Source of the DNA: Candidatus Eisenbacteria bacterium
Lineage (GTDB): Bacteria; Eisenbacteria; RBG-16-71-46; JAFGJU01
Reading direction: 5' to 3'
Assembly (NCBI GenBank): GCA_026388185.1
Contig: JAPLKG010000008.1
Span: forward strand, 310,001 to 374,000
DNA: 64,000 nucleotides
Shown one piece after another: positions 21,926 to 51,319 of this stretch. The notes under the pieces are model-generated. The model had not been told where the DNA came from. It was given only the letters and a program-made list of their open reading frames with translations, and searched no databases. The position numbers and the translations under genes are program-made. How positions within the stretch are numbered: the stretch's first letter is position 1; each line of letters begins with the position of its first letter.

Positions 21926-22010
<85 letters not shown>

Positions 22011-22092: not shown

Positions 22093-23112
22093 TCATCGTA
22101 CACGCTCCCACTTCCGCACTGTAACTGAGTCTCTAACAGCGAGCATTTCGTAGATTGAACCGTCTGTCCCTACAATCCAGGGCCCCTTGCCGTAGGTTAA
22201 AGTCGAGCGTTCATACCTCGGGAAGTCAATCACGGCGAGCATTCTTCCATCTGGAGAATATTTGCTTATCCTTTCGGACGAAGCAGTATCTGTGACCACG
22301 AAACTCTGTAGATAGACATTACTCAGACTATCTGTCCCCAAAGAGTCTCCCGGTAACTCTGCCCAGCCTTTGACCAACTTGCCTTCGTCATCAAACAGAA
22401 TCGGGTTCCCTTTTACATCCACCTTGCTGTTGCACCGCGCGAAGGACCGAAAAGGACCTGTGGATGCAAAGATCCCTTCCCGCAAACTCGACAATTGGCT
22501 AGAGTCAGGGAGAACTCTTCCCCTTTCCACGAGCTTTATTGATTTCGTTGCGCGCCAATCGGCTAAATAGACATTCTCATGTTGATCCGACACAATCCCC
22601 GCCGAATTGAACTGCGGATACCCCTCTTCCGAACGGCAGAAACTCCAAGGCACTGCGACTGGCACATTTCTCACTGAATCCACGCCTGCTGCCTTCAAGA
22701 ACACCCTATATCTGTCCTCCGCATCAGAAGTCTCGCAGAGAATGTATATGTCGCCGTTAGGGGGCAGAGTCATGTCCGTGGGAAACAGTAGGTCAACTTG
22801 CCAGGCCACGGCCTTGATCGTGTCCACGAATGCTCCATTATTTCCGTAGACCTTTATGTTTCCTTTCACCCCATCATATATGTAGATGTTCCCATCGGCG
22901 CCCATAGTGAAAAATAGAGCCCCGAGATAATTCCCATCGTATCCGTAGACCTTCTTCAGTCCGAATTCACTCTCCCCGCCACCGTACTGAGCCTGAATGA
23001 GGTTTCGGGGTCTGTAATTCTCGGCCGACAACGCGGTAGCAGGAATGAGCAAGGCCAAACCCAGCAACGCCGCGATCGATACCAGTCTTGTATTGACTCT
23101 CGAACAATCCAT
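22093..23112 (-). CDS. secreted six-bladed beta-propeller-like protein
   Basis: 339 residues from ATG 23112, preferred over an upstream GTG because AGGAGG is eight bases before it. A signal peptide (hydrophobic VSIAALLGLALLIPATALSAE) is followed by repeating blades with pattern (hydrophobic)-DGNIYIYD, NGDIYILCE, ENVYLADW, DGSIYEML, resembling NHL/6-bladed propellers of FCB bacteria. Such proteins are periplasmic or extracellular and bind ligands or peptides. It lies between the tRNA and the first att-like repeat, on the opposite strand to the core genes. The exact function is unknown. Confidence 0.75.
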   Translation of the reverse strand: MDCSRVNTRLVSIAALLGLALLIPATALSAENYRPRNLIQAQYGGGESEFGLKKVYGYDGNYLGALFFTMGADGNIYIYDGVKGNIKVYGNNGAFVDTIKAVAWQVDLLFPTDMTLPPNGDIYILCETSDAEDRYRVFLKAAGVDSVRNVPVAVPWSFCRSEEGYPQFNSAGIVSDQHENVYLADWRATKSIKLVERGRVLPDSSQLSSLREGIFASTGPFRSFARCNSKVDVKGNPILFDDEGKLVKGWAELPGDSLGTDSLSNVYLQSFVVTDTASSERISKYSPDGRMLAVIDFPRYERSTLTYGKGPWIVGTDGSIYEMLAVRDSVTVRKWERVR

Positions 23113-23842
23113 CAGCCACACCTCCTTAACTCGGAGAACTGGCGGATAACACGCACCCTAGCCCAGGATGGTGATCAAGATACAGGTGCTTTACACTAAA
23201 CGCCCAGAGAAGCTCAGGAGCGATTCGGGGGACACCGATACACTATACTCTCCGATTCCTGTGCTTTGGGTCAACGCGTGACACGAGAGCACGGGATCCG
23301 TTCAAAATCCCTGACAGTTTTGCCTGAAGTTGGTCCTGTCGCAACATGGGTGAAATCCCGCTCCCCGCACTGAAAAATCAGTAAGCCCGAATTTGTGATT
23401 CAGCCTCTAAACGCTGCCGTCTCTACTCTGTGCCTCCCTCTAGAAACGCACGTGCTATTTGCAGTTACTGCTTCTCTGGGTCTTCTGCCAACGACTTTCG
23501 GTGAGTGTACAGCTTGGGGTCCTCGGGATGGGAGCCTGACACCGCACCTTCTACTCCGGCCTTCTGGGTTGGTTTTCCGCTCCGATCCGAACATCTCGGC
23601 GCTCCCACTGAAAGAATCTTCCGGATTGCGGGCACAGCGTGCGGTTCTCTTTCCTCGTTCCCGACTCTGTGATAGCATGTAGTTGGGAATCTGTTGTCAC
23701 TGTAGTTGCAGATTATCTCCTAAGATCCCCAACAGGTAGTGCTCTATGGCTGACGGATCCGCATTCACTCCACGGCAGAAGCCCGAGATTCAGGGCGGCA
23801 TGGTCTCCGTCTTCTGTCGGACGCGGGCAAGGGTGTCCGAAA
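23113..23842. other. gene-poor stretch with first island repeat
   Basis: About 730 bases between divergent genes. It contains the repeat ending in a tRNA-Leu 3' fragment (23208-23370). Two overlapping ORFs on opposite strands (23395-23682 and 23400-23678) have no recognisable product, repeats or ribosome sites and are treated as chance. The remainder is probably leader for the large DUF4062-NACHT gene. Confidence 0.5.
23208..23370 (+). repeat. island repeat copy 1 with tRNA-Leu 3' fragment
   Basis: Shares long diverged blocks with the copy at 51142 (AAGCTCAGGAGCGATTCGGG, ATCCGTTCAAAATC, CACCTGAAG-like). It ends GGGTGAAATCCCGCTCCCCG-CAC, which matches the T arm and acceptor of the tRNA-Leu. 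Confidence 0.75.
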
Positions 23843-26800
23843 ATGGCACGTCGTGATTTGACCTTTCGCGTTTTTGTTAGTTCCACTTTCAGCGACCTAA
23901 TTGTCGAACGGAATGCGCTTCATGAGCGCGTATTCCCTAAGCTGCGTGAGTTGTGCCTTCAGCATAGCTGCCGCTTTCAGGCGATTGACCTGCGTTGGGG
24001 TGTGAGCCAAGAAGCGACGCTGGACCAGCAGACCATGAACATCTGCTTGCAGGAGTTGGAGCGCTGCCGATCAATCACCCCCAGACCGAACTTCATGGTG
24101 CTCCTGGGCGACCGTTATGGTTGGCAGCCTTTGCCGCCACAGATCGAAGCCGGAGAGTTTGAAGCAATTCTGGAATGGGTCTCGCCCGAGGAAAAGAAGC
24201 TTCTCCTCTGGGGTGATGATCAACCCAAGGGTTCAAAGGGTTGGTATCGAAAGGATGAGAACGCGGTTCCTGCCGAATACTGTCTCAGGCCACGTGAGCT
24301 CAATGTTCCAGAGAATGTGACTGATAAGGAGAGACGGGGGGCCTTAGACCGAGAGGCCAAGGAATGGGAAGAGACAGAAAGGATGTTGCGGTCAATTCTC
24401 CTTCGGGCTCTGGACCAGCTTGGCTGGCCCGAGGGTGATCCCCGTCGCATCAAGCATGAGTACTCAGCCACGCACCAGGAGATAATAGACGGGGCGTTAC
24501 GTGTGCCAGATGCGCATGAGCACGTGTACTGCTTTTTCAGGGAAATTGAGGGGTTGCCAATAGAGTCAAGCGCAAGAGGTTTTATTGACCTTGACGAGAC
24601 CGGACATCTGGATAGTGATGCGCGTGGGAAGCTACAAAGTCTCAAGCAAAGCATGCGTGATCTCTTGCCCGGCAACGTACGTGAGTACAAGGTGGGATGG
24701 GCTGGACGGGGCGTTACGACAGAGCATTTGAACGAGCTCTGCGATGACGTTTACAGTGGGTTATCGCGCGTGATACTGGAACAGATCCGGACACTTGAGA
24801 AGGTAGATGAGCTGAAAACGGAAATCGAAGAACATGAGTCCTGGGGTAAGGAACGCGCGCGATTTTTCACCGGTCGAACAAGCATCCTACAACGAATAAG
24901 TGATTACCTGAGAGGCACAGATACTCATCCGTTGGCTATCTTCGGTGTGTCTGGTTCTGGCAAGACAGCGCTGATGGCACACGCGGCACAAAAAGCGCGG
25001 GAGATGCTTCCCGGTGCCCGAGTCGTCGTGCGTTTCATAGGTGCTACCCCGGGCTCATCAGACGGGCGTTCCGTGTTGGAAGACGCCTGTCGTCACATAT
25101 ACAGAGTATTCGATTTTGAAGAACAAAAACAGAACCTCCTTATTGACGTGCGAGAGATTGGTGAAGAGGAACATAAGAAACGGCAGCGTATTAAGGACGA
25201 GTATTCCATCCCCACGGAGTTTCAGAAGCTTTGCGTAACTTTCCAGGAGTTCGTTGCGAAGATACCACGGTCAGAGAGCCTAATCCTCTTTCTGGATGCT
25301 TTGGAGCAACTTTCCGAAAGTGACGACGCGAGAAGCCTCTCCTGGTTACCCACTGAACTGCCCCCGAATGTGCGCCTCATTGTTTCATGCCTTGTGGGCA
25401 AGTGTCTCTCAGTGCTCCAGGAAGCGCTGCCCGCTGCAAACCTTGTGGAGTTGGGGTCAATGGAGCCTCAAGAAGGTGAGAGACTCTTGGACCTCTGGCT
25501 CCAAGATGCCCGAAGGACTCTTCAGCCTCGGCAGGGGACAGAGATCTTGGCGAAGTTCCGGAAATGTGCTCTCCCTTTGTATATGAGACTTGCATTTGAG
25601 GAGGTCAGGCTCTGGAAGTCTCATACCGAACAGAAAGAGCTGGGTCTCGACATAGGAGGCGTCATCGGCAACTTATTCCAACGGCTTTCGTCGGATGCGA
25701 ACCACGGGAGAGTGGTGGTTTCGCGCAGCTTGGGATATCTGGCCGCTGCGAAGAACGGCCTCGCCGAAGATGAATTGCTGGACATTCTGTCCCAGGATGA
25801 AGAGGTTGTGGCAGACTTCCTGCGCCGTTCGCCGCGGTCGCCGCGTGTTAAGCAGCTGCCTGTTGCCGTGTGGTCGCGCCTGTACTTCGAGCTCAAACCA
25901 TACTTGACCGAGCGGCGCGCCGATCGGACGTCCCTGCTTGGGTTCTATCATATGCAGGTGCGACAGGTCGTGACGGAAAGATACCTGCAGCGTGAGCGGG
26001 AACAGATAGTCCGGGACGGGCTGATCCAGTACTTTGGCTGTCAGCCTCACCAGCTAGTTGATTCCGCGGGAGGCAAGGCACCCAATGCTCGCAAACTCTC
26101 GGAATTGCCCTTTGCCCTTCGACGGTCATGCAGATGGATTGAGCTATCTGTGCTCTTGACCGACTACGATTTCGTGGAAGCCGAGGTGCAAGCCGGAATG
26201 GTCATCGATCTCGTCGGACACTATGGCGAGATTCTGGCAGCAGGGACGTCGCGGCTGGAAGGGCAGGAGGAGGTACAACTCAGAGCTTGGGCTAACTTCG
26301 TGAGGAGCTCGGCTCACCTGCTACTACGCGGCGATGACCCATTTTTTCAGCTGGCCCTTAACCACGCCGATCGTGGCCCCGTGGTTGCCGCGGCTGAGGA
26401 GAGGGCTAGATATCATCCGGGACCGTGGCTCCGCCTGCTCAACCGACCTGTGCAGGCACAGTACCCGGCATGCTTCCGCACACTGGAAGGCCACACGGAC
26501 GGCGTTAGTGCACTAGCCTTGACGCCGGATGGTCGCAGGATTGTCTCCGGTAGCGCTGATCGAACCTTGCGGCTTTGGGACCTTGAGAGCGGGCAATGCG
26601 TTCGTACCTTAGGAAAAGACATCGAGACGATAGAGTCCCTTGAAGTCTCGCCGGACGGTCGGCGCGTGGTTTCAAGTTGCAGATACAGAACGGTACGCGT
26701 GTGGGATCTCGAAGGTGGACGGTGTTTGCGCACTTACCGCGGGGGGTGGGGAGTGACCGAAAAGGTCACTGTCACTCCGGACGCCCACCTGGCGATATCT

Positions 26801-28609
26801 TACAGGGTGGACAGACGATTGACTAGGTGTGGTGGCCCTTTGAAACTGGACGGCACTTTGCGGGTGTGGGACTTGGATGTGGGTGACTGCGTGCGTAGCC
26901 TGGTTGGGCATCGTGAGCGGGTCCGAGCTGTTGTGGTAAGCGCAGATGGGCAAATCGCGCTCTCGGTCGGAGAGGATGGCATCAGGGTTTGGGCGTTGCG
27001 TACGGGCCAATGCCTGTGGCTCCTGGGGCGGGCCTCGACCTGGGTGGTCGCGATGACGCCGGACGGCCACCGCGCGGTCACGTGCAGCTTTGGGGAAGAG
27101 GCTCTGCGTATCTGGGATCTCAGTAGCGGGAGATCTTTGCAGACGTTCATAGGACAGTCCAGTGTGCGTGCCGTTGCCATCACGCCCGATGGACGGAGGG
27201 TCGTCTCAGTTGGGTTTTTGGACAAGATGTTGCGCGTTTGGGATACAGAAAGCGGCGCGTGTGTGGGCACGATAGGCGCAGCCCCTGACACCACGACTCT
27301 GGCCATCAAACCTGATGGAGGCTTCGCCGTGTCAGGAGGGTGGCGCGGGACAATCAAGGTCTGGGATCTGAGTACCGGTGAGGACGCCCACGTGAATCTA
27401 GGTCATCGCAAGAGCGTTGAGACCGTAGTCGTCACACCAGACGGGCGTATGGGCGTATCCGGGGGCTCAGGGAGTACGCTGCGGATATGGGATTTGGGTA
27501 CAGGTGATTGCGTGCGCGTGATTGAGTGGACAGGGGTAGCAGAAGCAATTGAAGTGACGCCGGACGGGACGCGGTTGGTGTTGTCGGGCGAGAATCGCCT
27601 GAGTCTATGGAATCTCGAAACAGGAGAGTGCATTAAGCGGTTGTCGGGAGACACGAATTGGGCAGACGTGATCGTCGTTACCCCGGACGGAAGGCGTCTT
27701 ATCTCAGGTGGATCCGATGGAGGTGTGAGGGTCTGGGATCTGCACACCGGAGAGCACCTGCAGGTCCTCGAAGGGCACACAGACTGCGTCCGAACCCTGG
27801 TGATCACCCCTGATGGGCGGCAGGTGATTTCCGGCAGCGATGACAAAAGCGTCCGAGTGTGGGATGTCGAAAGCGGCGAATGCGTGCGTGAACTGATAGG
27901 CCACACCGATGCAGTCGAGGCAATCGCCCTGAGTCCAGACGCGGGTCGCCTGGTCTCGGCAGGTGGCTTCGATCTTACGCTACGCGTCTGGAACCTAGAA
28001 AGTGGCGAGTGCTTGCACATACTCCAAGGGCACAAGTATAGAGTCAAAACCGTCGAGGTCACGCCCGACGGAGAGCAGGCAGTCTCTGCCGCACTTGACG
28101 ACACTGTGCGGGTATGGAACCTACAGAGCGGAGAGTGCTTGCATGCATTGGCCGGACATAGAGACAGAATAATCGCAATTGCCGTTAGCCAAGACGGGAG
28201 GCACCTTGTTTCCGGTGGAATGGACGGCACCGTTAGGGTATGGGATTTGGTTGCGGGGAGACAGATTGCCTGCTTCTCCGGCTGGGGGTATGTAAGGGCC
28301 TGCGCCCTGAGCCCGGACTGTCGTCGCATCCTCGCTGGTGGTGAAAGCGCTCTGGTGGGCCATGTTTTCTTGCTTGCGCTCGAGAATGCTGTCCACGATC
28401 CGTTGATCGCTACGGGCTGGCGTTCAACGGTCAACTCACGTCATGTGATGCGTTGCCCACATTGCCGTACTTGGTCCGCGATTTCAGAATCTTACCTCGG
28501 CGCAACGCTAAGGTGCCCCGTTTGCCACCGTCTCATCCGGCTCAACCGCTTCACTATCAGTGGAAACTATCGTCCTATCCAGGCCGCTTGGCGCAGTCGG
28601 CAAACCTAA
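23843..28609 (+). CDS. DUF4062-NACHT-WD40-zinc ribbon STAND protein
   Basis: 1588 residues from ATG 23843; the same frame is open upstream, but the paralogue at 47857 starts at the equivalent Met, and the DUF4062 domain begins at once (RDLTFRVFVSSTFSDLIVER). Domains: DUF4062 (about 5-100), linker (to 350), STAND/NACHT ATPase with P-loop GVSGSGKT (368-375) and Walker B LILFLDALEQL (about 480), helical winged region, 14-15 WD40 repeats (about 875-1510, two propellers' worth), and a C-terminal zinc ribbon (CPHC and CPVC, about 1537-1560). The architecture resembles animal TEP1/NWD proteins and bacterial NACHT defence proteins: WD40 senses, NACHT switches, DUF4062 acts or recruits. The defence role is inferred. 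It lies between island repeats 1 and 2, so it may be the cargo of one element. Confidence 0.85.
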   Translation: MARRDLTFRVFVSSTFSDLIVERNALHERVFPKLRELCLQHSCRFQAIDLRWGVSQEATLDQQTMNICLQELERCRSITPRPNFMVLLGDRYGWQPLPPQIEAGEFEAILEWVSPEEKKLLLWGDDQPKGSKGWYRKDENAVPAEYCLRPRELNVPENVTDKERRGALDREAKEWEETERMLRSILLRALDQLGWPEGDPRRIKHEYSATHQEIIDGALRVPDAHEHVYCFFREIEGLPIESSARGFIDLDETGHLDSDARGKLQSLKQSMRDLLPGNVREYKVGWAGRGVTTEHLNELCDDVYSGLSRVILEQIRTLEKVDELKTEIEEHESWGKERARFFTGRTSILQRISDYLRGTDTHPLAIFGVSGSGKTALMAHAAQKAREMLPGARVVVRFIGATPGSSDGRSVLEDACRHIYRVFDFEEQKQNLLIDVREIGEEEHKKRQRIKDEYSIPTEFQKLCVTFQEFVAKIPRSESLILFLDALEQLSESDDARSLSWLPTELPPNVRLIVSCLVGKCLSVLQEALPAANLVELGSMEPQEGERLLDLWLQDARRTLQPRQGTEILAKFRKCALPLYMRLAFEEVRLWKSHTEQKELGLDIGGVIGNLFQRLSSDANHGRVVVSRSLGYLAAAKNGLAEDELLDILSQDEEVVADFLRRSPRSPRVKQLPVAVWSRLYFELKPYLTERRADRTSLLGFYHMQVRQVVTERYLQREREQIVRDGLIQYFGCQPHQLVDSAGGKAPNARKLSELPFALRRSCRWIELSVLLTDYDFVEAEVQAGMVIDLVGHYGEILAAGTSRLEGQEEVQLRAWANFVRSSAHLLLRGDDPFFQLALNHADRGPVVAAAEERARYHPGPWLRLLNRPVQAQYPACFRTLEGHTDGVSALALTPDGRRIVSGSADRTLRLWDLESGQCVRTLGKDIETIESLEVSPDGRRVVSSCRYRTVRVWDLEGGRCLRTYRGGWGVTEKVTVTPDAHLAISYRVDRRLTRCGGPLKLDGTLRVWDLDVGDCVRSLVGHRERVRAVVVSADGQIALSVGEDGIRVWALRTGQCLWLLGRASTWVVAMTPDGHRAVTCSFGEEALRIWDLSSGRSLQTFIGQSSVRAVAITPDGRRVVSVGFLDKMLRVWDTESGACVGTIGAAPDTTTLAIKPDGGFAVSGGWRGTIKVWDLSTGEDAHVNLGHRKSVETVVVTPDGRMGVSGGSGSTLRIWDLGTGDCVRVIEWTGVAEAIEVTPDGTRLVLSGENRLSLWNLETGECIKRLSGDTNWADVIVVTPDGRRLISGGSDGGVRVWDLHTGEHLQVLEGHTDCVRTLVITPDGRQVISGSDDKSVRVWDVESGECVRELIGHTDAVEAIALSPDAGRLVSAGGFDLTLRVWNLESGECLHILQGHKYRVKTVEVTPDGEQAVSAALDDTVRVWNLQSGECLHALAGHRDRIIAIAVSQDGRHLVSGGMDGTVRVWDLVAGRQIACFSGWGYVRACALSPDCRRILAGGESALVGHVFLLALENAVHDPLIATGWRSTVNSRHVMRCPHCRTWSAISESYLGATLRCPVCHRLIRLNRFTISGNYRPIQAAWRSRQT

Positions 28610-28937
28610 TGCGGCTACGCCCAATAGGATTGAGGACCTAACTGGAAGGCCAACTGTAAATACGATTACGACTCAGCGCTCGCCAGACCGCCACATCATT
28701 TCCTGACTCTCAGTTTTCTCTCACCCTGTGCGACGAGGCCACGGGATCCGTCCAGAATCCCCGACAGTCTTGCCTGTAGTCGCTCTCGTCGCAATATGGG
28801 TGGAATCCCGCTCCCCGCACCAGCCGCTTTGCGACTGTAGGTGGATCCCAATATCCCTAACGGTTTATGAAGAAACCCCTGAGGCATAAGAGATGAACAC
28901 CCTAACAGTTCGCCAGGGTTGTGGCATTGCTCAACCC
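28610..28937. other. intergenic stretch with second island repeat
   Basis: About 330 bases between convergent genes. It holds repeat copy 2 (28701-28836). No gene and no clear terminator is seen. Confidence 0.5.
28701..28836 (+). repeat. island repeat copy 2 with tRNA-Leu 3' fragment
   Basis: Shorter copy beginning near TTTTCTCTCACC. It contains ACGGGATCCGTCCAGAATCC and ends TCCCGCTCCCCGCACCA (28806-28822). Fourteen further bases (CCGCTTTGCGACT) are shared with copy 3, showing the two junctions have the same downstream flank. Confidence 0.75.
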
Positions 28938-31427
28938 CTATGTCTGCCGGCGGATATCGAGTCCAACCTTAGCTAGGAACTCTGGTATATTGCGCACCGT
29001 CTCTCTATCCCACTTCTTGACGTCTTCAGAGAGTTTGGTCCAAGGCACAAGATAAGGACTGATCTTCTTGGTCACATCCCTCTCTTGACCTAATTTCCAG
29101 CCTTTCGAAAGCCTCTCGACATTCCACCGAGCATGTTCCATCTCAGCCATAAGTTCGACCTCATCGCTAGTGAACGTCATTACCGCAATATTGCGATCAG
29201 TAACTCGGTGCACTGTGCAGCCAATCCGCTGCAGTTTCTCAAAAACGTGATCGGCCTGCTGCAGGTTAGAATCTCTAAGATCGCTCGCCAACTTTCCCCA
29301 ATCTGCCATGGCCGGATCCTGGCCCGCCATGCTATCACAGCGAACTCGACGGTAGTTCTCGTGGATTGCCTTTGCGATGTTCTCGCGAATTGTGCGCTCC
29401 ACGGCTTGGCTTCTGGAGCCGATGAATGTTCGTGCGGTCATCGTATCCACAGGCAGAGGGAGTAGTGAACTTGCGGTTCTCCATTCATCGTCTACCGGCA
29501 ATCTCGCTGCTTCACCGCCACTGCCTTCTACAATGCCAACGACCGCACCAAGAGCTAACGCTATTCTGTACTCCGCCGCAGCTATGCTACCGCCGCCGAT
29601 GCCAAGCACCTTGACGCTCGACGGTTTGATATCCGATGTCACAATGTCAGTCCAATACTGTAGAGCCTCAAGCGGACTGTATCCCGTCCCATCTGAGTGA
29701 CGCATCTCCACCGGTGATTTGTCGCTGAGAATACCCGGTGACTCGTCCGCCGGGACGTACCCGATCATTGTGATACCAGTGCCATGCTCTTTGTAGATAT
29801 CCACAAGTGCAGGCTCTCCTCCGTCTGCGTTGAGACGTGAAACAACGGTTCCGTTGAAACCCCGAAACGCATCGAGCAGAAGTTGACGATAGCCCTGGGT
29901 CTCCTGCTCAGAGCCGGAGTTGACTCCGCCAACCAGTACGATGACAGGGCCTGTAATCGTACTGGCAGCCTTCGAGGCTAGAGCCTTGAGTCTTTCCAGG
30001 GATTCCTTTGAGGGAAACTTAATTGCCTGCCCGAGCAGAAGGAGTCTTCTTGCCCACTCGTACCCCTGCAGCTTGTCCCCGAAAACCGCGAGCCTATCCA
30101 GAGAACGAAGCGAAGTCTCTATCATGAATGCCGCCGTGCTTAGCTGCACGGCTCGGGCATAAGCGGCTAGACTTTCGTAGGGCATCCCAAGCAGCAGGTA
30201 GAACTTCCCAATGTCATAGAAAGCCCAAGGTAGGTTCATACCCACATCGGCTTGATCGTGGCATCTGGCAATCGCACTGTCTATCGCAGGACGTAGCAAT
30301 CCCACCATTGCAACGTCTGCGCGACGCAAGAGCTCACATTCAAGATAGTTTCCCAGAGGATACGGATCAGACGGGTCAAGTTCAAAGGCCTGGCGGTACA
30401 GTTCACGCGCCTTCTCGTCATCAATCCCTTTCCACGTGCCCGCCAACGAAGCCAGAGCATCGGGGTCTTTGTTGGGTGGCGCGGCAGCCGCCTCAAGATA
30501 TTTCTGTCCGTTGCGGTATTCATCACTACCCGGGTTTGCCTTATGTAACTTGCACATTGCCATTCCAAGGTCTCTGAGGATTGCATGGTTTCCCGATTCG
30601 GCATATCTCTTGAGCACGCTTATTGCCTTTTCAAAGTCATCGAGGGTGATGGCTAGCTTCCCGATACGAGCAGCAAGGTCGGCGTTACCCGCATCATGTT
30701 CCAGGATGATCTCGAGAAGGTCGATCTCCTCGCGCATTGTTTCCTTAGTCATGTAAGCCCCGTAAGTGGCAGAGTAGCGTTGAAGAGCCGACTGGATTCT
30801 TGCAAATGAATTGTCGGTTTGCTCGAGCATGCCGGCCAGCGCCGATAGCTCTCGCTGCCACTTTTCGGGAATCTTGAAGGCGCCCTTGTAGGCTCTGTCA
30901 TGAGTGAAAACCGCCCAGGCGTGTTCAAGTATCGTCTTTACCTGTATCTCCGCTTTGAGGCCGAGAGTCTCTTCCGGGATTTCAACGTCCACGTCCCCGG
31001 TCGGAAAGACACCCGGCCTCAATCGAACCACGTAGTGGACGGAACGATAACCAAATTCAGCAGGCTTGAGCCGTTGTGCTACGTCGATAGTATTCTCCCA
31101 GTCAATGTCAAAGTGCCGTTCAATGAACTCACAGACGGCCCTGACTTCGGCAAGCGTGGGGAGTATCACTCTAGCGCCGCACAAGTCCGTTATCTGATTG
31201 ACAGGATCCCTGTACTTGTTCTTCTTCCGCTGGATCTTTTCCCCAAAGCTAGCGACTGACTTTGGTCGTGTCTGTACGATGGCTAGCGGCGCGTACTTCT
31301 TCGCGGCTTTCTCGAGCACCACTTGGAGCATGTTAGCGTACTTCTGGTAGCGCCCATGTATAGATTTGTATTTCTCTATCTGACTTTTGGCCCATTCCTC
31401 TTCTTTAGATTTGGTGCTTTCTTCCAT
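28938..31427 (-). CDS. RelA/SpoT-TPR-SLOG-RyR multidomain protein
   Basis: 829 residues from ATG 31427 (GAGGAACG upstream). Domains: short coiled coil, RelA/SpoT nucleotidyltransferase (about 50-210, with DLCGARVIL, GYRSVHYVV and EIQVKTILEHAWA), TPR-like helices (about 235-470), a Rossmannoid SLOG/LSDAT-type domain (about 493-655; VIVLVGGVNSG and LGIGGGSIAAAEYRIAL), and a C-terminal RyR domain (about 705-822; MEHARWNVERLSKGWKLG, PYLVPWTKLSEDVKKWDR). SLOG and RyR domains are described as nucleotide-ligand sensing parts of bacterial conflict systems; the RelA/SpoT part suggests the protein makes a (p)ppGpp-like nucleotide. No hydrolase (HD) domain is seen. A NUDIX gene lies 93 bases upstream on the same strand, a likely operon mate. 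Confidence 0.85.
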   Translation of the reverse strand: MEESTKSKEEEWAKSQIEKYKSIHGRYQKYANMLQVVLEKAAKKYAPLAIVQTRPKSVASFGEKIQRKKNKYRDPVNQITDLCGARVILPTLAEVRAVCEFIERHFDIDWENTIDVAQRLKPAEFGYRSVHYVVRLRPGVFPTGDVDVEIPEETLGLKAEIQVKTILEHAWAVFTHDRAYKGAFKIPEKWQRELSALAGMLEQTDNSFARIQSALQRYSATYGAYMTKETMREEIDLLEIILEHDAGNADLAARIGKLAITLDDFEKAISVLKRYAESGNHAILRDLGMAMCKLHKANPGSDEYRNGQKYLEAAAAPPNKDPDALASLAGTWKGIDDEKARELYRQAFELDPSDPYPLGNYLECELLRRADVAMVGLLRPAIDSAIARCHDQADVGMNLPWAFYDIGKFYLLLGMPYESLAAYARAVQLSTAAFMIETSLRSLDRLAVFGDKLQGYEWARRLLLLGQAIKFPSKESLERLKALASKAASTITGPVIVLVGGVNSGSEQETQGYRQLLLDAFRGFNGTVVSRLNADGGEPALVDIYKEHGTGITMIGYVPADESPGILSDKSPVEMRHSDGTGYSPLEALQYWTDIVTSDIKPSSVKVLGIGGGSIAAAEYRIALALGAVVGIVEGSGGEAARLPVDDEWRTASSLLPLPVDTMTARTFIGSRSQAVERTIRENIAKAIHENYRRVRCDSMAGQDPAMADWGKLASDLRDSNLQQADHVFEKLQRIGCTVHRVTDRNIAVMTFTSDEVELMAEMEHARWNVERLSKGWKLGQERDVTKKISPYLVPWTKLSEDVKKWDRETVRNIPEFLAKVGLDIRRQT

Positions 31428-31520
31428 CTGAACGTTCCTCGTGGTTTCGGTGCTTTCCGATGACTATCTATAATCGGAGAAAATGGTTTTCGATCTTACT
31501 GCTGCCATCTTGGGAAACGG

Positions 31521-31934
31521 TCAACTTTCCTCGGCTTGAATGTAGTTCTTAGCAAACACTCTGAATTGATCCACCAGATCCATGTCCGCAAGATCATGAG
31601 GATCGACCCAGATGTATTCGTCGTGCTCGCTGCTAAGGCGGACCTCGCCGGATTCTACAATACCTTCTAGAATCAAGTATGCAACTCTAGTCGTAGGCGA
31701 CTCGTACTCGGACGCTCCCAGAACACGTTGAAGTGAAACCCGCAGGCCGGTCTCCTCGGCAACCTCGCGCAGCAGCCCCTGTTCAAAGCTCTCCCCACTG
31801 TCAACTTTACCGCCGGGTAGGTCCCACCTCCCAGGGCTTCCCCTGGAACTCAACGAACGCTTGAGGAGCAGACAGCGTCCGTTGTTATCACGAAGCAGGA
31901 CCTTGGCAGACAACCTAATCGGTCTTGATGACAT
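31521..31934 (-). CDS. NUDIX hydrolase
   Basis: 137 residues from ATG 31934 (GGGAG seven bases upstream); the frame extends 29 codons further but without family similarity. The Nudix box GX5EX7REUXEEXGU is complete (GKVDSGESFEQGLL then REVAEETGLRV). The family cleaves nucleoside diphosphates linked to other groups, including damaged dNTPs, NAD, ADP-ribose and (p)ppGpp. It is transcribed just ahead of the RelA/SpoT-SLOG-RyR gene, so it may degrade or process the nucleotide made by that protein; this is inference from position. Confidence 0.85.
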   Translation of the reverse strand: MSSRPIRLSAKVLLRDNNGRCLLLKRSLSSRGSPGRWDLPGGKVDSGESFEQGLLREVAEETGLRVSLQRVLGASEYESPTTRVAYLILEGIVESGEVRLSSEHDEYIWVDPHDLADMDLVDQFRVFAKNYIQAEES

Positions 31935-33432: not shown

Positions 33433-34536
33433 CTACTCCCGTTTAAGCTCCCTCTTCCAAATCATGTCGAGAAATCTGTCAAGTAGTCCAGATGAAACGA
33501 AAAGATTCACAGCTTTAGTAGTTTCGTGGGCGAGATTACCCCAGAGTGCTACCCGCCTGTCTCCCTGGTCCATGGAATGCTGAACGGTTATTCTCTCCTT
33601 ACTGACTGGGTCTCTTGGGAGCGCTTTAACAATATCCGCGGTCAATTTGTTGCTGACCGGCCCCCCGATGGCAATGAGCGGACATCTCATGAATTCCTGT
33701 TCTGCGAGCAGCCCCACGTCCGTGACCACACAGGCAAACTCCATTTTCTCGGGACTGCCTTTGCGATTGATTTCGTTCCTCAGCTCTGTTGCGTCTTCTC
33801 CATCGTGTATCTGTGGAAGGATCATGGCGCCTACAACTATCAATATGCTCTTCCTCCAATCCGGCCGCCTCTCCCGAAGCAGTTCACCAACGTTCACTGT
33901 CCAGCCCGGATGCTTGTAGAGGGGATCTATCCCATGGATGTCGCATAGAAGATCCCGTGCCTCGGGAATCTGAAGGTGCTTCCAGTATTCCATGGCCCTC
34001 GCAAATGCCACTACTAGCCCCGCTTCTGCGGGGGAGTGAGCCATCGAATCCTGACCAGCATGAGATGCTGAAGTAATCTCTTGTGACCCAGCCGGCCGAA
34101 CCCCCAACTCAAGCAACCCTCTTTCTATGCGAGGAAGAATGGCCAGCACACCCTCTGGTGGGATTCTGATTGAGACGGCAGCCCCCAGACACTGCGCCAG
34201 GTCAGGCTTGCGTTCCTGAAGCTCAGCGTGAGTGATGTCGCGAAGGACGGGAATAAAAGGCTTACCCTGTTCATAAGCTCTGACAACTTCGTTCGTGGTG
34301 TGGGAAGCACGGGCACGAAGGAAATCCTGGGAGATTACCACCAGAACAACTCTGGCCTGATCGATTGCCTCTCGCACCTGAGTTAGGTAAGTAACCCCGG
34401 GAAGGGCGTCACGTTCGTAATACCAGGTCGTATAGCCTGCTTTCTCCAGTCCCTCAGCAAGTTGCTTTACTACGTCGGAGTTTTTCTCAACGTAACTGAC
34501 GAAAATATCAGCCTTGCGGAGTCTCGAATTCGACAT
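33433..34536 (-). CDS. TIR domain protein with uncharacterised C-terminal domain
   Basis: 367 residues from ATG 34536 (GTGAGG eight bases upstream). Residues about 9-140 are a TIR_2 domain (ADIFVSYVEKNSD, GYTTWYYERDALPG, VVLVVISQDFL), with Glu83 at the usual NADase catalytic position. The C-terminal about 210 residues contain a Rossmann-like run (SILIVVGAMILPQI, CVVTDVGLLAEQEF, CPLIAIGGPVSNKLTADI) that I cannot assign; it may sense a ligand. TIR domains in bacterial immunity cleave NAD or make cyclic ADP-ribose signals when activated. A SLOG-4TM gene lies upstream on the same strand, 248 bases away. Confidence 0.78.
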   Translation of the reverse strand: MSNSRLRKADIFVSYVEKNSDVVKQLAEGLEKAGYTTWYYERDALPGVTYLTQVREAIDQARVVLVVISQDFLRARASHTTNEVVRAYEQGKPFIPVLRDITHAELQERKPDLAQCLGAAVSIRIPPEGVLAILPRIERGLLELGVRPAGSQEITSASHAGQDSMAHSPAEAGLVVAFARAMEYWKHLQIPEARDLLCDIHGIDPLYKHPGWTVNVGELLRERRPDWRKSILIVVGAMILPQIHDGEDATELRNEINRKGSPEKMEFACVVTDVGLLAEQEFMRCPLIAIGGPVSNKLTADIVKALPRDPVSKERITVQHSMDQGDRRVALWGNLAHETTKAVNLFVSSGLLDRFLDMIWKRELKRE

Positions 34537-34784: not shown

Positions 34785-36482
34785 CTATGGCCGAAGCACT
34801 TGAAACCTGAATATCACCCGCCAGTCCTGGTTTTCCAGAAGCATCAGCTCGTTGGCTTCTTCCAGGGAACCGACGAGCGTCTCCCTGTCTTCTGATTGCT
34901 CTATTCGCCCCGTAATTCTGGTCAAGTGGTCGACCATGTGTCTATATCGCTCCGAGTTTCGTAAGTACTCGCGGTGAATACGAATGCTTGCGATAGCAGC
35001 GCCAGCCGCCGGCAGAACTATAGCCCAGGACGCCAAGATATTCGTAAGAGTAGCAAGCTCTGGTCTCCAGTTGGCTTCGAGCCTGCCCGCATGGACGATT
35101 GCGACCACTAGCGTCAACGCGAACACCATCGCTCCGGCACTGGCAAGCCGAGTGTGCTTTGCCCTCTGCCTCACGCTTTTGCTCTTATAGAAAGAGATTT
35201 GGTCTTCTATCCATGCCGCCAGCAAGAAGTTTCTAAGATTCTCGAATGAGACTGTGGGGCTCGGGTCTCCCTTGGGCCGTGCGTCCCAAATCGACGCAAA
35301 TGCCTTAACCATCCAGTCATCTGGCCTGTACGATAGGCTCAGGGGTGGTGGTGCAGTTTTGGGAGGCTCGCATTCTATGCCTGCCACCCACAAAAAAATA
35401 GCGGCACGCAGACGCTCTGCCACAAATCTATAATCAATCCATTTGCGATGCCACTCACGCCGCCAGGAAAGCGCCAGTAACACGAGAATGGCCGCAATCT
35501 CACCAACCTCAACCCAAAGTAGGGCAGGGCGAAGCGGAAATAGAAGCGCTTGAACTGTCACTGTTGCCACTGCAGCTGCCGCCAGAAGGTAGATTGCAAC
35601 TCCTGCGTTCACATGGTAGGTCTGGTAGTGAGCGGCCAGGAAATCGGCACGTGCGTATTGAGAGACCATGTTGTCATGTAACGGCTTCAGAACGTCTGGC
35701 GGAAGGGTGTAAGGCGCCCCCGTTCGACCCGGAATGCCGAACTCAGCCTCAACTGCCGACATACTCCTGGTGCTGCCTAAGCGCTCGCCATTATAGGCGT
35801 CCAGATGCCTAAGAGAGTCAAGCGCATGATCCTCGCTTCCCACTCCCTCTGTTTTCTTCTCTTCGTTTATGCGCTCCAGCCTCTCCCTCGTCTTCTTTGT
35901 ATCTCCTATCTCGCCATTCTCCGAATTGATCCAGAATACGGACCGTCCGGTCTTGAGCGCATATTCCACTATCTCCGCCGTGCCCCCTCGGCCTTCCGAG
36001 GGTTTCCCGCTCCAGACGGCAATGAGCACGTCGCAATTGTCGACTACATACTGACCCACCTGCTCATATGCAGCAGGGCGGGGCTCCACAGTCTTGAGGG
36101 CGCGTGGTTCAGGGCTTGCCAGACCAAGAAGGCGCTTGAACTCTTCCTTCGATTCTTGTGTCTCGAAGTCTTGAAGATAGTCTTCCTCAGGTAATGGAAG
36201 TACTACTTCCAGACGGGGTTGCTGGCTGCCATCGGAGACCGGCCACTGCACAATCTCTGTCGCGACCAGGCGGTCGGCACCCTCGGCTAAAGGTGAAAGC
36301 ACCACATAGAGGTGCGGCGTGTGATCCAGAAGCTGGTCGATTCGCCGGAGCACGTCCTTCACTTTCCGGCGAAGAAGTTGCTCATTCGCAAGCTTTCTGT
36401 GGCCTGTTACGCCCATGCGCACAGTTGTGGGAATAAGGAGTTCCTTCCGATCAACTGACGAATCTGTGACCTTGTTTCTCAC
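34785..36482 (-). CDS. SLOG domain fused to 4TM (SLATT-like) membrane region
   Basis: 565 residues from GTG 36482, supported by GGGAGGG seven bases upstream. Residues about 20-225 are a SLOG-type Rossmannoid (RMGVTGHRKL, VVLSPLAEGADRLVA, NCDVLIAVWSGKPSEGRGGT), known from DprA-like and conflict-system nucleotide sensors. The C-terminal half has four predicted membrane helices (about 282-305, 310-328, 448-468, 478-500) separated by a conserved cytoplasmic segment, resembling SLATT-type effectors (SMODS/SLOG-associated). These are thought to form pores once the sensor binds a nucleotide signal (family knowledge). In this island the signal could come from the RelA/SpoT or TIR proteins (inference). 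Confidence 0.8.
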   Translation of the reverse strand: MRNKVTDSSVDRKELLIPTTVRMGVTGHRKLANEQLLRRKVKDVLRRIDQLLDHTPHLYVVLSPLAEGADRLVATEIVQWPVSDGSQQPRLEVVLPLPEEDYLQDFETQESKEEFKRLLGLASPEPRALKTVEPRPAAYEQVGQYVVDNCDVLIAVWSGKPSEGRGGTAEIVEYALKTGRSVFWINSENGEIGDTKKTRERLERINEEKKTEGVGSEDHALDSLRHLDAYNGERLGSTRSMSAVEAEFGIPGRTGAPYTLPPDVLKPLHDNMVSQYARADFLAAHYQTYHVNAGVAIYLLAAAAVATVTVQALLFPLRPALLWVEVGEIAAILVLLALSWRREWHRKWIDYRFVAERLRAAIFLWVAGIECEPPKTAPPPLSLSYRPDDWMVKAFASIWDARPKGDPSPTVSFENLRNFLLAAWIEDQISFYKSKSVRQRAKHTRLASAGAMVFALTLVVAIVHAGRLEANWRPELATLTNILASWAIVLPAAGAAIASIRIHREYLRNSERYRHMVDHLTRITGRIEQSEDRETLVGSLEEANELMLLENQDWRVIFRFQVLRP

Positions 36483-37096: not shown

Positions 37097-39913
37097 TCAT
37101 CTCGGGAATATGTGCGAGGCGGACTGGCACAGCTTGATGCTCCGACGCGCCAGTTCCTCTCTAGTGGCGGACATGCTAGACGCGACACATAGAGCGTCAG
37201 CCCACACTCGTTCCCCTTGTTCGTGTTGACCGGCATGCCACGCGATGGCACCCTGACCGGTCAGTGCCCGGTACAGCCAAATCCTTATGTCTTTTTCACG
37301 GCAAAGGTCGGCAACGCTCTGATACCACTTTAGCGCCTCTGCCGAATCTCCTTGCACATGCGCAAGCGCTCCCAATTCCATTTCGTATTCAGCAAGCAGT
37401 TCCCCATGCTGCCGCTTTAGTAGCTTGCTGCCGGCCATCTCCAACCATTTGGCTCCTTCCTTGAGATCGCCCCGGACCAGTGCACACCAGCCCAAAGCCA
37501 ATCTTGCCTCTAGAGTATAGTAGAGATCGTGCACGCGTTCGGCCTCACACAAAGCTTCCCGGAAAGCCGCGTCCGTTTGTCCAGGAGTCCAGCCTTCAAG
37601 CAGTGCCCGGTCGTACTCAAGCCAACCGCGGAGCATGAGCAGCCGCGCCTTTTCAAGATGAACCTGCTCCGTTTCACTGAGCTTGGCCGCGAGTTGCAGA
37701 TATGAGTCTGTTTCATCGTATCTGCCGGCAGCTTTGTGGACCGTCGCAATCATGCGCGCGGCGGCAACAATGTGCCGGATATCGTGGGCCTGCCGCGCCT
37801 GTCGTAGGCCCCATGTCGCTTGGCGCATGACCTCCTCGAATTCGTAGCGCGCATAAGCGACTGTGGCCAGTCCAATCAGATTCGCCGCTGCTTCATCGTG
37901 ATGGATCGGCATCCCCCACAGACAAAGACGCAGGGCCTGACAATAGCATCGCTTGGCGCTGACCGTGTCCCCATCGTAGAGATGCAACGAACCCAATTCG
38001 TGCAGTGCTATCGCCCGAATCCGACGCCCTCGCCACCAAGAGGTTCGGGCCAGTGCGTAATTCAATCTCTCGCGCGCCTCTTGGTATTCTCCTCTCAAGC
38101 TGCATATCCTGGCAGCCTGCGTGGCGAGCCCTGCGGCTTGCATCGGACTGTGCTCCGGCTTTTCGAGGTGACGGATCAGGGCGTCGAGACAGTACAGGCC
38201 AGTGTTGCCTTCGCCTTGCTCAACCCAGCGGGTTACGAGGTTCATCTCAGAGTCGAACACGAGATGCCTCAGGTCATGCCACCGCCTTGCCTCAACCAGA
38301 TGCACCGGTAAATGGCGTGTGGCGTAGGGTGACATTGCCTTTGTGTCGGACTCATACTCCTTCCAGCAGGCACTCGCCAGTTGTTGATGCCCGGCCTGCG
38401 TAGAAATCGCGTATTCTAGGCTGTATTTCGCCTCCGTGAGCCAGTCCGCAAGACTGGAGTGAAAGAGTCTGATTCCTTCTTCGCGCCACCTTAGAAACTG
38501 CGCCAGATCGAGCAGGCCACAGCGGACGCCCGGCTCCTCTCCATTGACAGCACTGACCAGGAGTCTCTCGGGAATCGGTTCACGCGCTGCCACGAGGCAA
38601 TTGAGCAGCGGCAATATCTTGAGTTCGTAGGCTTTGATGTCCTTGAACCGTTTCTGGAACAGCGAGTAGTACAGCCCTTTCAGTTCCGGGGGGATTGCCC
38701 CAATGTCCTGATGGCCCAGGCGTCTCTCCGGATCAGTGAGTGCTTCCAGAACCGTGTGGGCATATAGGAAATTGCCTTCAGCCCGTGTCTGCAGGCGAAC
38801 GCATGTCGCCTCCAATTCCGAGTCCGACGAAGCGATCGACTCGATCTGAGAAAGTCTCTGTCGGACGTACGCCGCGACGTCCTCCTGATTTCTCTCTCGT
38901 TCGGCGCTCAGATCGAGGGTCTTGAAGCGGGCCAGGCGGATGAGAATGCTGGATACGGGTCGGGTGGTAACGACGATTCTAAGCCATGCAGGCAGTGTGT
39001 CAGCATGTTCTGCCAACAGGTCAACGATCGTCTCGCCTTCCATGGACGTTGCCTCATCCAGCGAATCCACAACCACTAACCTGGGTCCATCGGGTGCCGG
39101 CATCTTGCGGGTCGGCTCGACGATCAACTCCCGGAAGGCATCATTGGCGTTCGGCCGTCGGGCTTGTGGATAGGCCGGTTCGACTGCGGAATCATAGCCC
39201 TGCAACTCCGAATAGAATTGGGCAACCAGTGATGTCACTAACTCGTATGGATTGAGCGTACGTCTATTTCGGGTTGTGCAAAAGTGGATGCCGATAACAT
39301 GTACAGGCCGCGTTTGACACAACCAGGCAGCAATCGCGCTCTTTCCAGCGCCTGGTTCGCCCACGACAACGAACACTCGATCTGACGCATCATGCAACCA
39401 GTGACTGATTCGTTGTCTCAGCCAATCCCGTCCCACAAAACCGAATCCGTACTGGGCAATCTCAGGCCCGAAGTCAAGTGGGGTCAGACCACTGACGGTC
39501 GGCAGCGCCGGTGGCAACAGGACATCTTCGGCTCCTGCTAGGAATTCGCGCAGGCGACGTAGACCCTCATCATAGTTGCGCGTAAAATCAACCCAGTTCC
39601 GACGAACCAGCGGCAATGTGAACTGAGCATCTGGTGAAACTCGTGCCGGAATCACTGGACGTGGCAACACCAGCGCAAACGCCACTTCATCGCGGCAGAC
39701 GCTATCTTCACGCGTAGCATGTGGCGTCAAGACCGCGACCAGTAGAGACGAATCCAGGATTGCGCGTTCAATGGCAGCGTCCCAAGGCTGGCTGAGCCTG
39801 ATGCCAGACTCATCCCACCACACTACGTAGCCTGTCGTCTCGAGATCGCGTCTCAGCCGTCCGGCAAAAGCCTCACCGTCTGCGTGACCGTAGCTTATGA
39901 ATATCTGCTTCAC
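37097..39913 (-). CDS. TIR-NACHT-TPR STAND protein
   Basis: 938 residues from GTG 39913 (AGGTGG five bases upstream). The frame is open for 49 more codons, but those encode part of a foreign SLOG domain read in the wrong frame. Domains: TIR (about 1-125; KQIFISYGHADGEAF, TTGYVVWWDESGI, with Glu in VCRDEVAFAL), a NACHT/AAA ATPase (P-loop GEPGAGKS, about 185-192; Walker B RLVVVDSLDEA), a helical region, and a C-terminal TPR array (about 560-930). The design is that of bacterial and plant STAND immune receptors: TPR senses, NACHT oligomerises, and TIR consumes NAD (family knowledge). Its upstream SLOG scar shows recombination at this boundary. Confidence 0.85.
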   Translation of the reverse strand: MKQIFISYGHADGEAFAGRLRRDLETTGYVVWWDESGIRLSQPWDAAIERAILDSSLLVAVLTPHATREDSVCRDEVAFALVLPRPVIPARVSPDAQFTLPLVRRNWVDFTRNYDEGLRRLREFLAGAEDVLLPPALPTVSGLTPLDFGPEIAQYGFGFVGRDWLRQRISHWLHDASDRVFVVVGEPGAGKSAIAAWLCQTRPVHVIGIHFCTTRNRRTLNPYELVTSLVAQFYSELQGYDSAVEPAYPQARRPNANDAFRELIVEPTRKMPAPDGPRLVVVDSLDEATSMEGETIVDLLAEHADTLPAWLRIVVTTRPVSSILIRLARFKTLDLSAERERNQEDVAAYVRQRLSQIESIASSDSELEATCVRLQTRAEGNFLYAHTVLEALTDPERRLGHQDIGAIPPELKGLYYSLFQKRFKDIKAYELKILPLLNCLVAAREPIPERLLVSAVNGEEPGVRCGLLDLAQFLRWREEGIRLFHSSLADWLTEAKYSLEYAISTQAGHQQLASACWKEYESDTKAMSPYATRHLPVHLVEARRWHDLRHLVFDSEMNLVTRWVEQGEGNTGLYCLDALIRHLEKPEHSPMQAAGLATQAARICSLRGEYQEARERLNYALARTSWWRGRRIRAIALHELGSLHLYDGDTVSAKRCYCQALRLCLWGMPIHHDEAAANLIGLATVAYARYEFEEVMRQATWGLRQARQAHDIRHIVAAARMIATVHKAAGRYDETDSYLQLAAKLSETEQVHLEKARLLMLRGWLEYDRALLEGWTPGQTDAAFREALCEAERVHDLYYTLEARLALGWCALVRGDLKEGAKWLEMAGSKLLKRQHGELLAEYEMELGALAHVQGDSAEALKWYQSVADLCREKDIRIWLYRALTGQGAIAWHAGQHEQGERVWADALCVASSMSATREELARRSIKLCQSASHIFPR

Positions 39914-40110
39914 TGCCGCCACCTTCGACTGCACCAACGGAAGCGCCGAATGCCAAGGCCATTCTGTACCCCGCTGCGGCGACGCTGCCCCGTTGATACC
40001 CAGAACCTTGACCGTTAATGGAATAATATCAGAGGTCACGGTGTCAATCCAATACTCCATTGGCTTCAGCAGGCTGGATTCCTCCGTGTCTGAGCGGCAG
40101 ATTTTTGGGT
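39905..40110 (-). pseudogene. frameshifted SLOG-domain fragment
   Basis: Minus-strand sequence aligns with the SLOG part of the RelA/SpoT-SLOG-RyR gene (29507-29700). MEYWIDTVTSDI and VKVLGI match one frame; after a one-base deletion near 39985-39995 the next frame reads SVAAAGYRMALAFGASVGAV, matching SIAAAEYRIALALGAVVGIV. On both sides of the indel the DNA alignment is ungapped for 40-60 bases. It is a remnant of a second SLOG gene, fused by recombination to the start of the TIR-NACHT-TPR gene. Confidence 0.8.
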
Positions 40111-47814: not shown

Positions 47815-47856
47815 GCCGGTGTGGTCGGATTGTCGAACAGAGAAGGAATCTCGCAG

Positions 47857-51141: not shown

Positions 51142-51319
51142 AGAAGCCTCAGGAGCGATTCGGGCGACACCGATATATTACTCTCCGGCTCTTGTGTTTT
51201 CTCTCACCGCGTGCCGCGAGCGCTGGTGATCCGTTCAAAATCTCCAACAGTCTCACCTGAAGCTGATTCTGTCGCAATATAGGTAGGATGGGGCTCCCCG
51301 CACCAACCGCTTTGCGACT
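51142..51319 (+). repeat. island repeat copy 3 with tRNA-Leu 3' fragment (probable attR)
   Basis: Matches copy 1 over most of its length (AGAAGC-CTCAGGAGCGATTCGGG, GATCCGTTCAAAATC, CACCTGAAG). It ends GGGGCTCCCCGCACCA (to 51305), then CCGCTTTGCGACT, shared with copy 2. Typical chromosomal genes resume immediately after it. Confidence 0.75.

What the first reader, a model, noticed from the sequence alone, without database searches (positions are those of the whole stretch)
28938..31934. NUDIX plus RelA/SpoT-TPR-SLOG-RyR: a candidate self-contained nucleotide-signalling system
One polypeptide joins a synthetase-type RelA/SpoT domain, TPR helices, a SLOG/LSDAT nucleotide-binding domain and an RyR domain, directly behind a NUDIX hydrolase on the same strand. 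SLOG and RyR are known as nucleotide-signal sensors in predicted bacterial conflict systems. Here synthesis, sensing and possible removal of an alarmone-like signal would be coded by two genes. I do not know a described system of this exact composition.
Basis: partly seen in the sequence, partly recalled or inferred. Interest (0 to 1): 0.8.

Follow-up and report, generated by a model that had tools for sequence, protein, structure and literature searches.

The report
NUDIX-paired, sensor-fused alarmone synthetase cassette
A bacterial protein that joins an apparently intact alarmone-making domain to three domains that look like nucleotide-signal sensors recurs in unrelated bacteria beside its own NUDIX enzyme and TIR immune genes, so it is probably a growth-arrest switch of an anti-phage type of system that has not been described in this form.

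Summary
Window 28938-31427 (-) encodes an 829-aa RelA/SpoT synthetase domain, TPR, LSDAT-type SLOG and RyR protein, 93 bp behind an intact NUDIX gene (31521-31934). The RyR part is a tandem pair folding like the animal RyR Repeat12 domain. All synthetase residues checked are kept. In the window copy only, the glycine-rich SLOG motif is lost. The same architecture occurs patchily in Chloroflexota, Verrucomicrobiota, Myxococcota and one class relative; Asgard archaea have a form without RyR. A same-strand NUDIX lies beside it in five of the loci found, upstream in three and downstream in two, and is the closest NUDIX to this one in each genome. In a sixth locus only a NUDIX remnant is left. TIR genes lie nearby in most loci and RyR-tailed RCK channel-like genes in four. 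Recent work shows phage RyR domains bind or cleave TIR-made cADPR, and MutT/NudG-type NUDIX enzymes cut (p)ppGpp. Best reading: a TIR-linked alarmone synthetase switched by an ADP-ribose-type signal, with the NUDIX removing the product. 'Self-contained' is too strong. The cassette lies in a tRNA-Leu-associated genomic island. Activity, ligand and phage defence are untested.

The parts
28938..31427 (-). RelA/SpoT synthetase - TPR - SLOG (LSDAT) - tandem RyR protein, 829 aa
30762..31292 (-). RelA/SpoT synthetase domain (aa 46-222); R54, K56, K64, D81, Y127, E160, Q162, H176 kept
29982..30761 (-). TPR array (aa 223-482), partly TPR-S-like; best fold match ASK1 central regulatory region (5ulm, Z 18.2)
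29412..29954 (-). SLOG/LSDAT domain (aa 492-672); fold match 1rcu Z 14.2; glycine-rich motif replaced in the window copy
28941..29411 (-). tandem RyR (Repeat12-like) module (aa 673-829); H765, W768, D807 kept in repeat 2, H689 in repeat 1
31521..31934 (-). NUDIX hydrolase, 137 aa, intact NUDIX box, MutT/NudG/NudI type
33433..34536 (-). TIR-domain protein, same strand upstream; TIR 55% identical to the TIR flanking the homologue in L059
32444..33360 (+). remnant of an IS3-type insertion sequence between the TIR and NUDIX genes
   Evidence: rve domains; split into two ORFs
34785..36482 (-). protein with DUF4231 and SLATT_1 (2TM) regions, possible pore-forming effector
37097..40060 (-). TIR-NACHT/STAND-TPR protein; its start overlaps a decayed piece of a second SLOG copy (39906-40093)
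23639..28609 (+). STAND-type protein with DUF4062-like N terminus and WD40-like repeats, flanking the cassette; a diverged second copy of part of it lies at 47852-48906
   Evidence: domain names read from the sequence, the Pfam scan of this ORF did not complete; true start probably internal to the listed ORF
28696..28820 (+). attachment-site-like direct repeat (copy 2 of 3) ending in the tRNA-Leu 3' sequence; other copies 23246-23370 and 51179-51303; tRNA-Leu at 21926-22010

Best explanation
It is a mobile nucleotide-signalling cassette, most likely an abortive-infection type defence. The C-terminal half (TPR, SLOG, tandem RyR) binds a small nucleotide, most likely an ADP-ribose-type signal made by neighbouring TIR proteins. 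This releases the N-terminal RelA/SpoT-type domain, which moves pyrophosphate from ATP onto a guanine or adenine nucleotide, making an alarmone that stops growth. The paired MutT/NudG-like NUDIX enzyme cleaves the alarmone, setting a threshold and allowing recovery. Shown here: domains, folds, retention of synthetase and NUDIX residues, retention of the RyR His/Trp/Asp residues, recurrent NUDIX linkage. Inferred: pyrophosphokinase activity, ligand, gating, NUDIX substrate, TIR as signal source, defence role.
For: Catalytic residues conserved in the RyR-bearing members, RSD usually the most or near-most conserved domain. Profile closer to RelQ/RelP (RelQ E about 1e-17, best SAS chains 3e-21) than to CapRel (8e-7). 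NUDIX beside it in window, L005, L006, L030, L031; the linked NUDIX is 66, 59, 42 and 37% identical to the window's, other NUDIX genes in those genomes at most 35% (apart from a truncated second copy in L006); it is the only NUDIX found in the window's genome. NUDIX box invariant; NCBIfam hits are NudI/NudG/MutT; E. [quoted passage not shown] RyR: phage RyR-domain proteins bind or cleave 2'/3'cADPR via H, W, H, D (PMC13232231); H, W, D of repeat 2 are kept in all eight members; RyR3 Repeat12 binds adenine nucleotides (PMC12627627). TIR: two of three TIR genes of G1325 and two of five of G047 flank the gene, and the only TIR of G048 lies about 3 kb away. Island with att-like repeats, patchy distribution.
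Against: No activity data. The window copy lacks the SLOG glycine motif, so its SLOG may not bind a nucleotide. The RyDEP phosphate-binding His (H100) is not His in seven of eight members. In three Verrucomicrobiota genomes (G048, G569, G534) and two Asgard genomes checked no other RelA/SpoT match was found, so a classical stringent response may be absent there. NUDIX was not found at the G007 locus and is a remnant in G1325. TIR genes cluster in defence islands anyway. TIR was not found near the G569 and G049 copies (short contig for G049).
Confidence: 0.45

Rival explanations
1. A truly self-contained alarmone circuit: RSD makes the nucleotide, SLOG/RyR in the same protein sense that product (feedback), NUDIX removes it; TIR genes are incidental island neighbours.
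For: NUDIX pairing is the most constant feature; the nucleosidase YgdH binds (p)ppGpp allosterically (PMC5845004; its place in the LOG/SLOG superfamily is from general knowledge).
Against: RyR family evidence points to cADPR/adenine ligands; TIR and RyR-tailed channel-like genes recur.
Confidence: 0.2
2. A toxSAS-like enzyme that pyrophosphorylates tRNA (or makes (pp)pApp) as a growth-arresting toxin, held off by its own C-terminal half; the NUDIX acts as the antidote.
For: Fold match to CapRel bound to a phage trigger (9erv, Z 12.3) and weak profile matches to CapRel; a fused regulatory half is the CapRel logic.
Against: Sequence is closer to housekeeping RelQ/RelP; no antitoxin-type zinc-finger domain recognised.
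Confidence: 0.15
3. A TIR-signal pathway in which the RyR module and NUDIX serve signal removal: RyR cleaves or holds cADPR, NUDIX hydrolyses released ADPR, and the RSD is a secondary output.
For: RyDEP precedent and H/D dyad kept in repeat 2; TIR neighbours.
Against: NUDIX matches MutT/NudG/NudI and no ADP-ribose diphosphatase model was listed; phosphate-binding His missing.
Confidence: 0.12
4. Ordinary stress-response alarmone synthetase with sensor domains, not a defence system.
For: Asgard forms without RyR sit in varied, partly housekeeping-like neighbourhoods.
Against: Patchy spread over phyla, island setting, TIR/STAND/SLATT neighbours.
Confidence: 0.08

Closest known systems
Small alarmone synthetases RelQ (SAS1) / RelP (SAS2)
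   Same: RelA/SpoT synthetase fold and active-site residues; best PDB profile matches, 5ded Z 14.0
   Different: Those are single-domain enzymes; here about 600 further residues of TPR, SLOG and tandem RyR, and a linked NUDIX
CapRel (fused toxSAS anti-phage system)
   Same: One polypeptide with an RSD synthetase domain and a regulatory C-terminal half
   Different: CapRel senses phage protein through a small zinc-finger-like domain (general knowledge); here nucleotide-sensor-like domains and a NUDIX partner
Thoeris (TIR ThsB plus SLOG effector ThsA)
   Same: TIR genes beside a protein with a SLOG domain
   Different: Output domain is an alarmone synthetase instead of SIR2, Macro or membrane effector; SLOG is LSDAT-like; TIR not present in every locus
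RyDEP / RyR Repeat12 family (PMC13232231, PMC12627627)
   Same: Tandem RyR fold with His, Trp and Asp of the ligand pocket kept
   Different: RyDEP is a stand-alone phage anti-defence protein; here it is a host C-terminal module; phosphate-binding His replaced
NUDIX enzymes acting on alarmones: E. coli MutT/NudG, Bacillus NahA
   Same: Closest NUDIX models are NudI/NudG/MutT type; box intact
   Different: Those are not linked to a synthetase gene as far as I know; substrate here unknown
LSDAT-SLOG / RyR / TPR-S / SLATT predicted conflict systems (Burroughs, Aravind and co-workers)
   Same: Same domain vocabulary
   Different: An RSD-TPR-SLOG-RyR plus NUDIX composition was not found in the papers I could search; their 2015 NAR paper was not held, so prior mention cannot be excluded
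PADLOC candidates PDC-S33 and PDC-S07
   Same: Moderate matches of the RSD (1.4e-20) and NUDIX (2.9e-19) parts
   Different: PDC-S33 model is 349 long and matches only residues 4-192; no TPR/SLOG/RyR match

Membership tests
RelA/SpoT-type pyrophosphokinase (RSH/SAS synthetase domain) | Fold and sequence family | tested here: met
   Pfam E=2.6e-18; 5ded Z 14.0, 28% id
RelA/SpoT-type pyrophosphokinase (RSH/SAS synthetase domain) | Catalytic and substrate residues (D81, E160, Y127, R54, K56, K64, Q162, H176) | tested here: met
   Alignment with RelQ and homologues
RelA/SpoT-type pyrophosphokinase (RSH/SAS synthetase domain) | ATP-dependent pyrophosphate transfer | not testable with these tools
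   needs purified protein
Small alarmone synthetase (SAS) proper | Single-domain protein | tested here: not met
   829 aa with TPR, SLOG, RyR
CapRel / toxSAS | RSD with cis or adjacent antitoxin module; tRNA or ATP pyrophosphorylation | tested here: inconclusive
   RSD fold matches 9erv; no antitoxin module recognised; activity untested
NUDIX hydrolase | GX5EX7REUXEEXGU box | tested here: met
   kept in all five linked copies
MutT/NudG subfamily of NUDIX | Curated equivalog cut-offs | tested here: not met
   E 1e-10 to 1e-17 but 41-61 bits against cut-offs of 95 and more; a separate subfamily of that type
LSDAT-type SLOG | Pfam LSDAT_prok / SLOG fold | tested here: met
   13 of 15 members match, best 4.4e-9; 1rcu Z 14.2; window copy alone is below cut-off
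LSDAT-type SLOG | Glycine-rich nucleotide-binding motif in the window copy | tested here: not met
   VSRLNADGGEPAL where others have SGGTxxGvsG or a close variant
TPR-S | Pfam TPR-S gathering score | tested here: inconclusive
   window 23.8 bits against 27.6; 11 of 15 members at E<=0.1, best 3.6e-8
RyR Repeat12 / RyDEP family | Tandem RyR fold | tested here: met
   6uhe Z 12.9 over 658-828
RyR Repeat12 / RyDEP family | Ligand residues H75, W78, D117 of RyDEP | tested here: met
   H765, W768, D807 invariant in eight members; correspondence placed by motif, not by structure overlay
RyR Repeat12 / RyDEP family | Phosphate-coordinating H100 | tested here: not met
   Ser at this place in the window; His only in the L031 member
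Thoeris | Linked TIR protein | tested here: met
   window, L005, L059, L006 close by; L031 and G007 within about 6 kb
Thoeris | Known ThsA-type effector domain activated by cADPR | tested here: not met
   RSD in place of SIR2/Macro/TM; activation untested

The most novel reading that the evidence does not exclude
A two-tier nucleotide relay: TIR proteins make a cADPR-type signal, the SLOG/RyR half of this protein reads it and switches on synthesis of a second messenger of the (p)ppNpp type, with a dedicated NUDIX as reset and, in some hosts, an RCK channel-like protein with the same RyR tail as a second effector. This would join ADP-ribose immune signalling to alarmone signalling in one cassette.
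Probability: 0.25. Interest if true: 0.85.

Novelty: new variant of a known kind. Interest (0 to 1): 0.62.

Why it matters
If right, an alarmone synthetase would be the output of, or a relay in, TIR/ADP-ribose immunity, linking two nucleotide signal systems that are studied apart, and giving a host-side role to RyR domains, which a 2026 preprint placed on the phage side. It also gives a testable answer to what bacterial RyR and LSDAT-SLOG domains bind and how an alarmone is cleared in hosts where no other RelA/SpoT protein was found.

Tried and rejected
Frameshift as the cause of the missing SLOG motif: other frames of the segment give no such motif. Phage or plasmid carriage: only the RSD part (to about residue 300) finds matches there, no full architecture. 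LMW-phosphatase reading of the ORF between RSD and NUDIX in L030: no Pfam match, so left unassigned. NUDIX as an ADP-ribose diphosphatase: no such model in the NCBIfam list, which does not exclude it. RyR presence as a single clean clade: the tree needs two changes and is poorly resolved. ASK1 as the top fold match (Z 18.2) is a TPR array match and is not used as evidence of function. Integrase at 22093-23121: no Pfam match. The organism was not identified.
Full report
Observation. The ORF at 28938-31427 (-) and the NUDIX ORF at 31521-31934 (-) are present as described. Pfam finds RelA_SpoT, TPR repeats and RyR in the window protein and LSDAT_prok only weakly. Scanning 15 homologues makes LSDAT_prok (13 of 15, best 4e-9) and TPR-S (11 of 15, best 4e-8) clear for the family. 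An AlphaFold model from five sequences (mean pLDDT 75.8) matches, in order, RelQ/Rel synthetases, TPR arrays, the SLOG-fold protein TM1055 (1rcu, Z 14.2, 2.9 A over 156 residues) and the tandem RyR Repeat12 domain of human RyR3 (6uhe, Z 12.9, 3.3 A over 162 residues). The RyR part is therefore a tandem module.

Active site. Against RelQ and homologues, R54, K56, K64, D81, Y127, E160, Q162 and H176 are kept in the RyR-bearing bacterial members. They are partly lost in variants where a sigma-54-type AAA+ domain (assigned by reading the sequence) precedes the RSD (L034, L033) and in the longer Asgard forms, which shows that loss is possible and that retention here is not trivial. By domain, the RSD is mostly the best conserved. 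The window SLOG is the exception: it lacks the glycine-rich 'SGGTxxGvsG' motif and is 48% identical to the G047 SLOG, whereas G047 and G1325 are 77% identical to each other there. Other frames do not restore it.

Distribution. Matches at E<=1e-40 (1e-30 in the own phylum) were found in 2 of 47 genomes of the window's phylum, 1 of 400 in the phylum of the Anaerolineae hit, 4 of 387 in that of the Verrucomicrobia hit, 2 of 282 in that of the Polyangiaceae hit, 4 of 298 in the class of the Anaerolineae hit, and 12 of 195 in the phylum of the Lokiarchaeal hit (some are partial proteins or cut by contig ends). The Asgard proteins read here have RSD-TPR-SLOG without a recognised RyR. No full-length relative was found among phage, plasmid or IMG/VR records.

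NUDIX linkage. A same-strand NUDIX gene sits upstream in the window, L005 and L006 and downstream in L030 and L031. In L030 an unassigned ORF lies between. L006 also has a truncated second copy downstream. In each genome the linked gene is the best NUDIX match to the window's (66, 59, 42, 37% identity; unlinked ones at most 35%), and none passes E 1e-10 in G007, G049 and G050. In L059 a 15-residue piece of the NUDIX C-terminus remains just before the RSD start. NUDIX genes number 1, 9, 12, 8 and 6 in the five genomes with a linked copy. My rough estimate for one falling within some 600 bp on the same strand by chance is 0.0003 to 0.002 per genome. The five are not independent if the cassette is inherited as a unit, but the changed order shows that the linkage outlives rearrangement. 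The NUDIX box is kept in all. Its nearest models are NudI, NudG and MutT. E. coli MutT and NudG turn (p)ppGpp into pGp (PMC5845004), and pGpp is an alarmone in Bacillus whose formation by a NUDIX enzyme I cite from general knowledge (PMC7584652, only its abstract start seen).

Other neighbours. TIR genes flank the RSD gene directly in L059 and lie on both sides of the NUDIX-RSD pair in L005; one lies about 3 kb away in L006, where it is the only TIR match of that genome; in the window a TIR gene lies upstream with an insertion-sequence remnant between. The L059 and window TIR domains are 55% identical. A protein with an N-terminal membrane-like part, a TrkA_N/RCK domain and the same RyR tail lies next door in L005, L059, L060 (overlapping the RSD start by 4 bp) and L031. 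Its model matches RCK domains and RyR Repeat12 (low confidence, mean pLDDT 64). In L059 the RyR domain was not found by Pfam.

What RyR suggests. A May 2026 preprint (PMC13232231) shows that phage RyR-domain proteins cleave or sequester 2'cADPR and 3'cADPR through H75, W78, H100 and D117. RyR3 Repeat12 binds adenine nucleotides in the same kind of cleft (PMC12627627). In repeat 2 of our family the H-x-x-W pair and the Asp (H765, W768, D807 in the window) are invariant in eight members, whereas the H100 position is mostly Ser, Thr or Asn. Binding of an ADPR-type signal is therefore plausible, hydrolysis less so. SLOG as a cADPR sensor is established for ThsA (PMC9503650).

Setting. The cassette lies between two of three 125-nt direct repeats (23246, 28696, 51179) that end in the tRNA-Leu 3' sequence, the tRNA being at 21926-22010. 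Genes of this stretch have lower GC3 (0.55-0.62) than the flanking genes measured (0.64-0.72). A decayed second SLOG piece (39906-40093) and a diverged copy of part of the STAND/WD40 gene show repeated gain and decay. No recombinase was recognised. This is a composite genomic island with defence-type genes.

Mechanism. Best reading: a sensor-gated alarmone synthetase, probably activated by an ADP-ribose-type signal, with the NUDIX as reset. Shown: domains, residues, linkages, island. Inferred: catalysis, ligand, gating, NUDIX substrate, defence. In G048, G569 and G534 no second RelA/SpoT match was found. All three have the NUDIX; the three hosts where it is lost or unseen (G1325, G049, G007) also have another RelA/SpoT protein. 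This fits a need for an alarmone-removing enzyme but the numbers are small, and the two Asgard genomes checked (G050, G1294) have no second RelA/SpoT match, with no NUDIX relative in G050.

Verdict. Observation confirmed; interpretation partly supported. A new variant of known nucleotide-signalling conflict systems; exact composition not found in the searchable literature, with the caveat that the most relevant 2015 survey (10.1093/nar/gkv1267) was not held.

Noticed in passing
window 23246-23370, 28696-28820, 51179-51303; tRNA-Leu 21926-22010: Three 125-nt direct repeats ending in the tRNA-Leu 3' sequence mark a composite genomic island of about 29 kb built of at least two cassettes; no integrase recognised.
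   Followed up: partly
L034 727-4020 and L033 8417-11188: Variants in which a sigma-54-type AAA+ domain precedes the RSD-TPR(-SLOG) part and the synthetase motifs are damaged: possibly the RSD reused as a ligand sensor in a transcription activator.
   Followed up: partly
L005 2692-4488, L009 6222-8024, L011 1765-3627, L012 741-2516, L031 11367-13112, L060 4252-6099: Family of membrane-RCK(TrkA_N)-tandem RyR proteins in Anaerolineae, Methanoperedens and Verrucomicrobiota, often next to DUF4062-STAND or RSD genes; a candidate ligand-gated channel without an obvious potassium filter sequence.
   Followed up: partly
L008, L062, L063, L064, L065, L066, L067, L068: Asgard archaea (12 of 195 genomes) carry RSD-TPR-SLOG proteins without RyR or NUDIX; in the two genomes checked no other RelA/SpoT match was found.
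   Followed up: partly
window 39906-40093: Decayed piece of a second SLOG copy at and before the start of a TIR-NACHT-TPR ORF.
   Followed up: partly
window 23838-25171 and 47852-48906: Two diverged copies (78-86% DNA identity) of part of a STAND/WD40 gene in the island.
   Followed up: no
window 43131-45317 (-): 728-aa protein with a C-terminal TIR domain and unassigned N-terminal part.
   Followed up: no
L030 5664-6038 (-): Unassigned 124-aa ORF between RSD and NUDIX; start resembles low-molecular-weight phosphatases by eye, no Pfam match.
   Followed up: partly
L006 10518-10862 (+): Truncated second NUDIX copy of the same subfamily on the other side of the RSD gene.
   Followed up: yes
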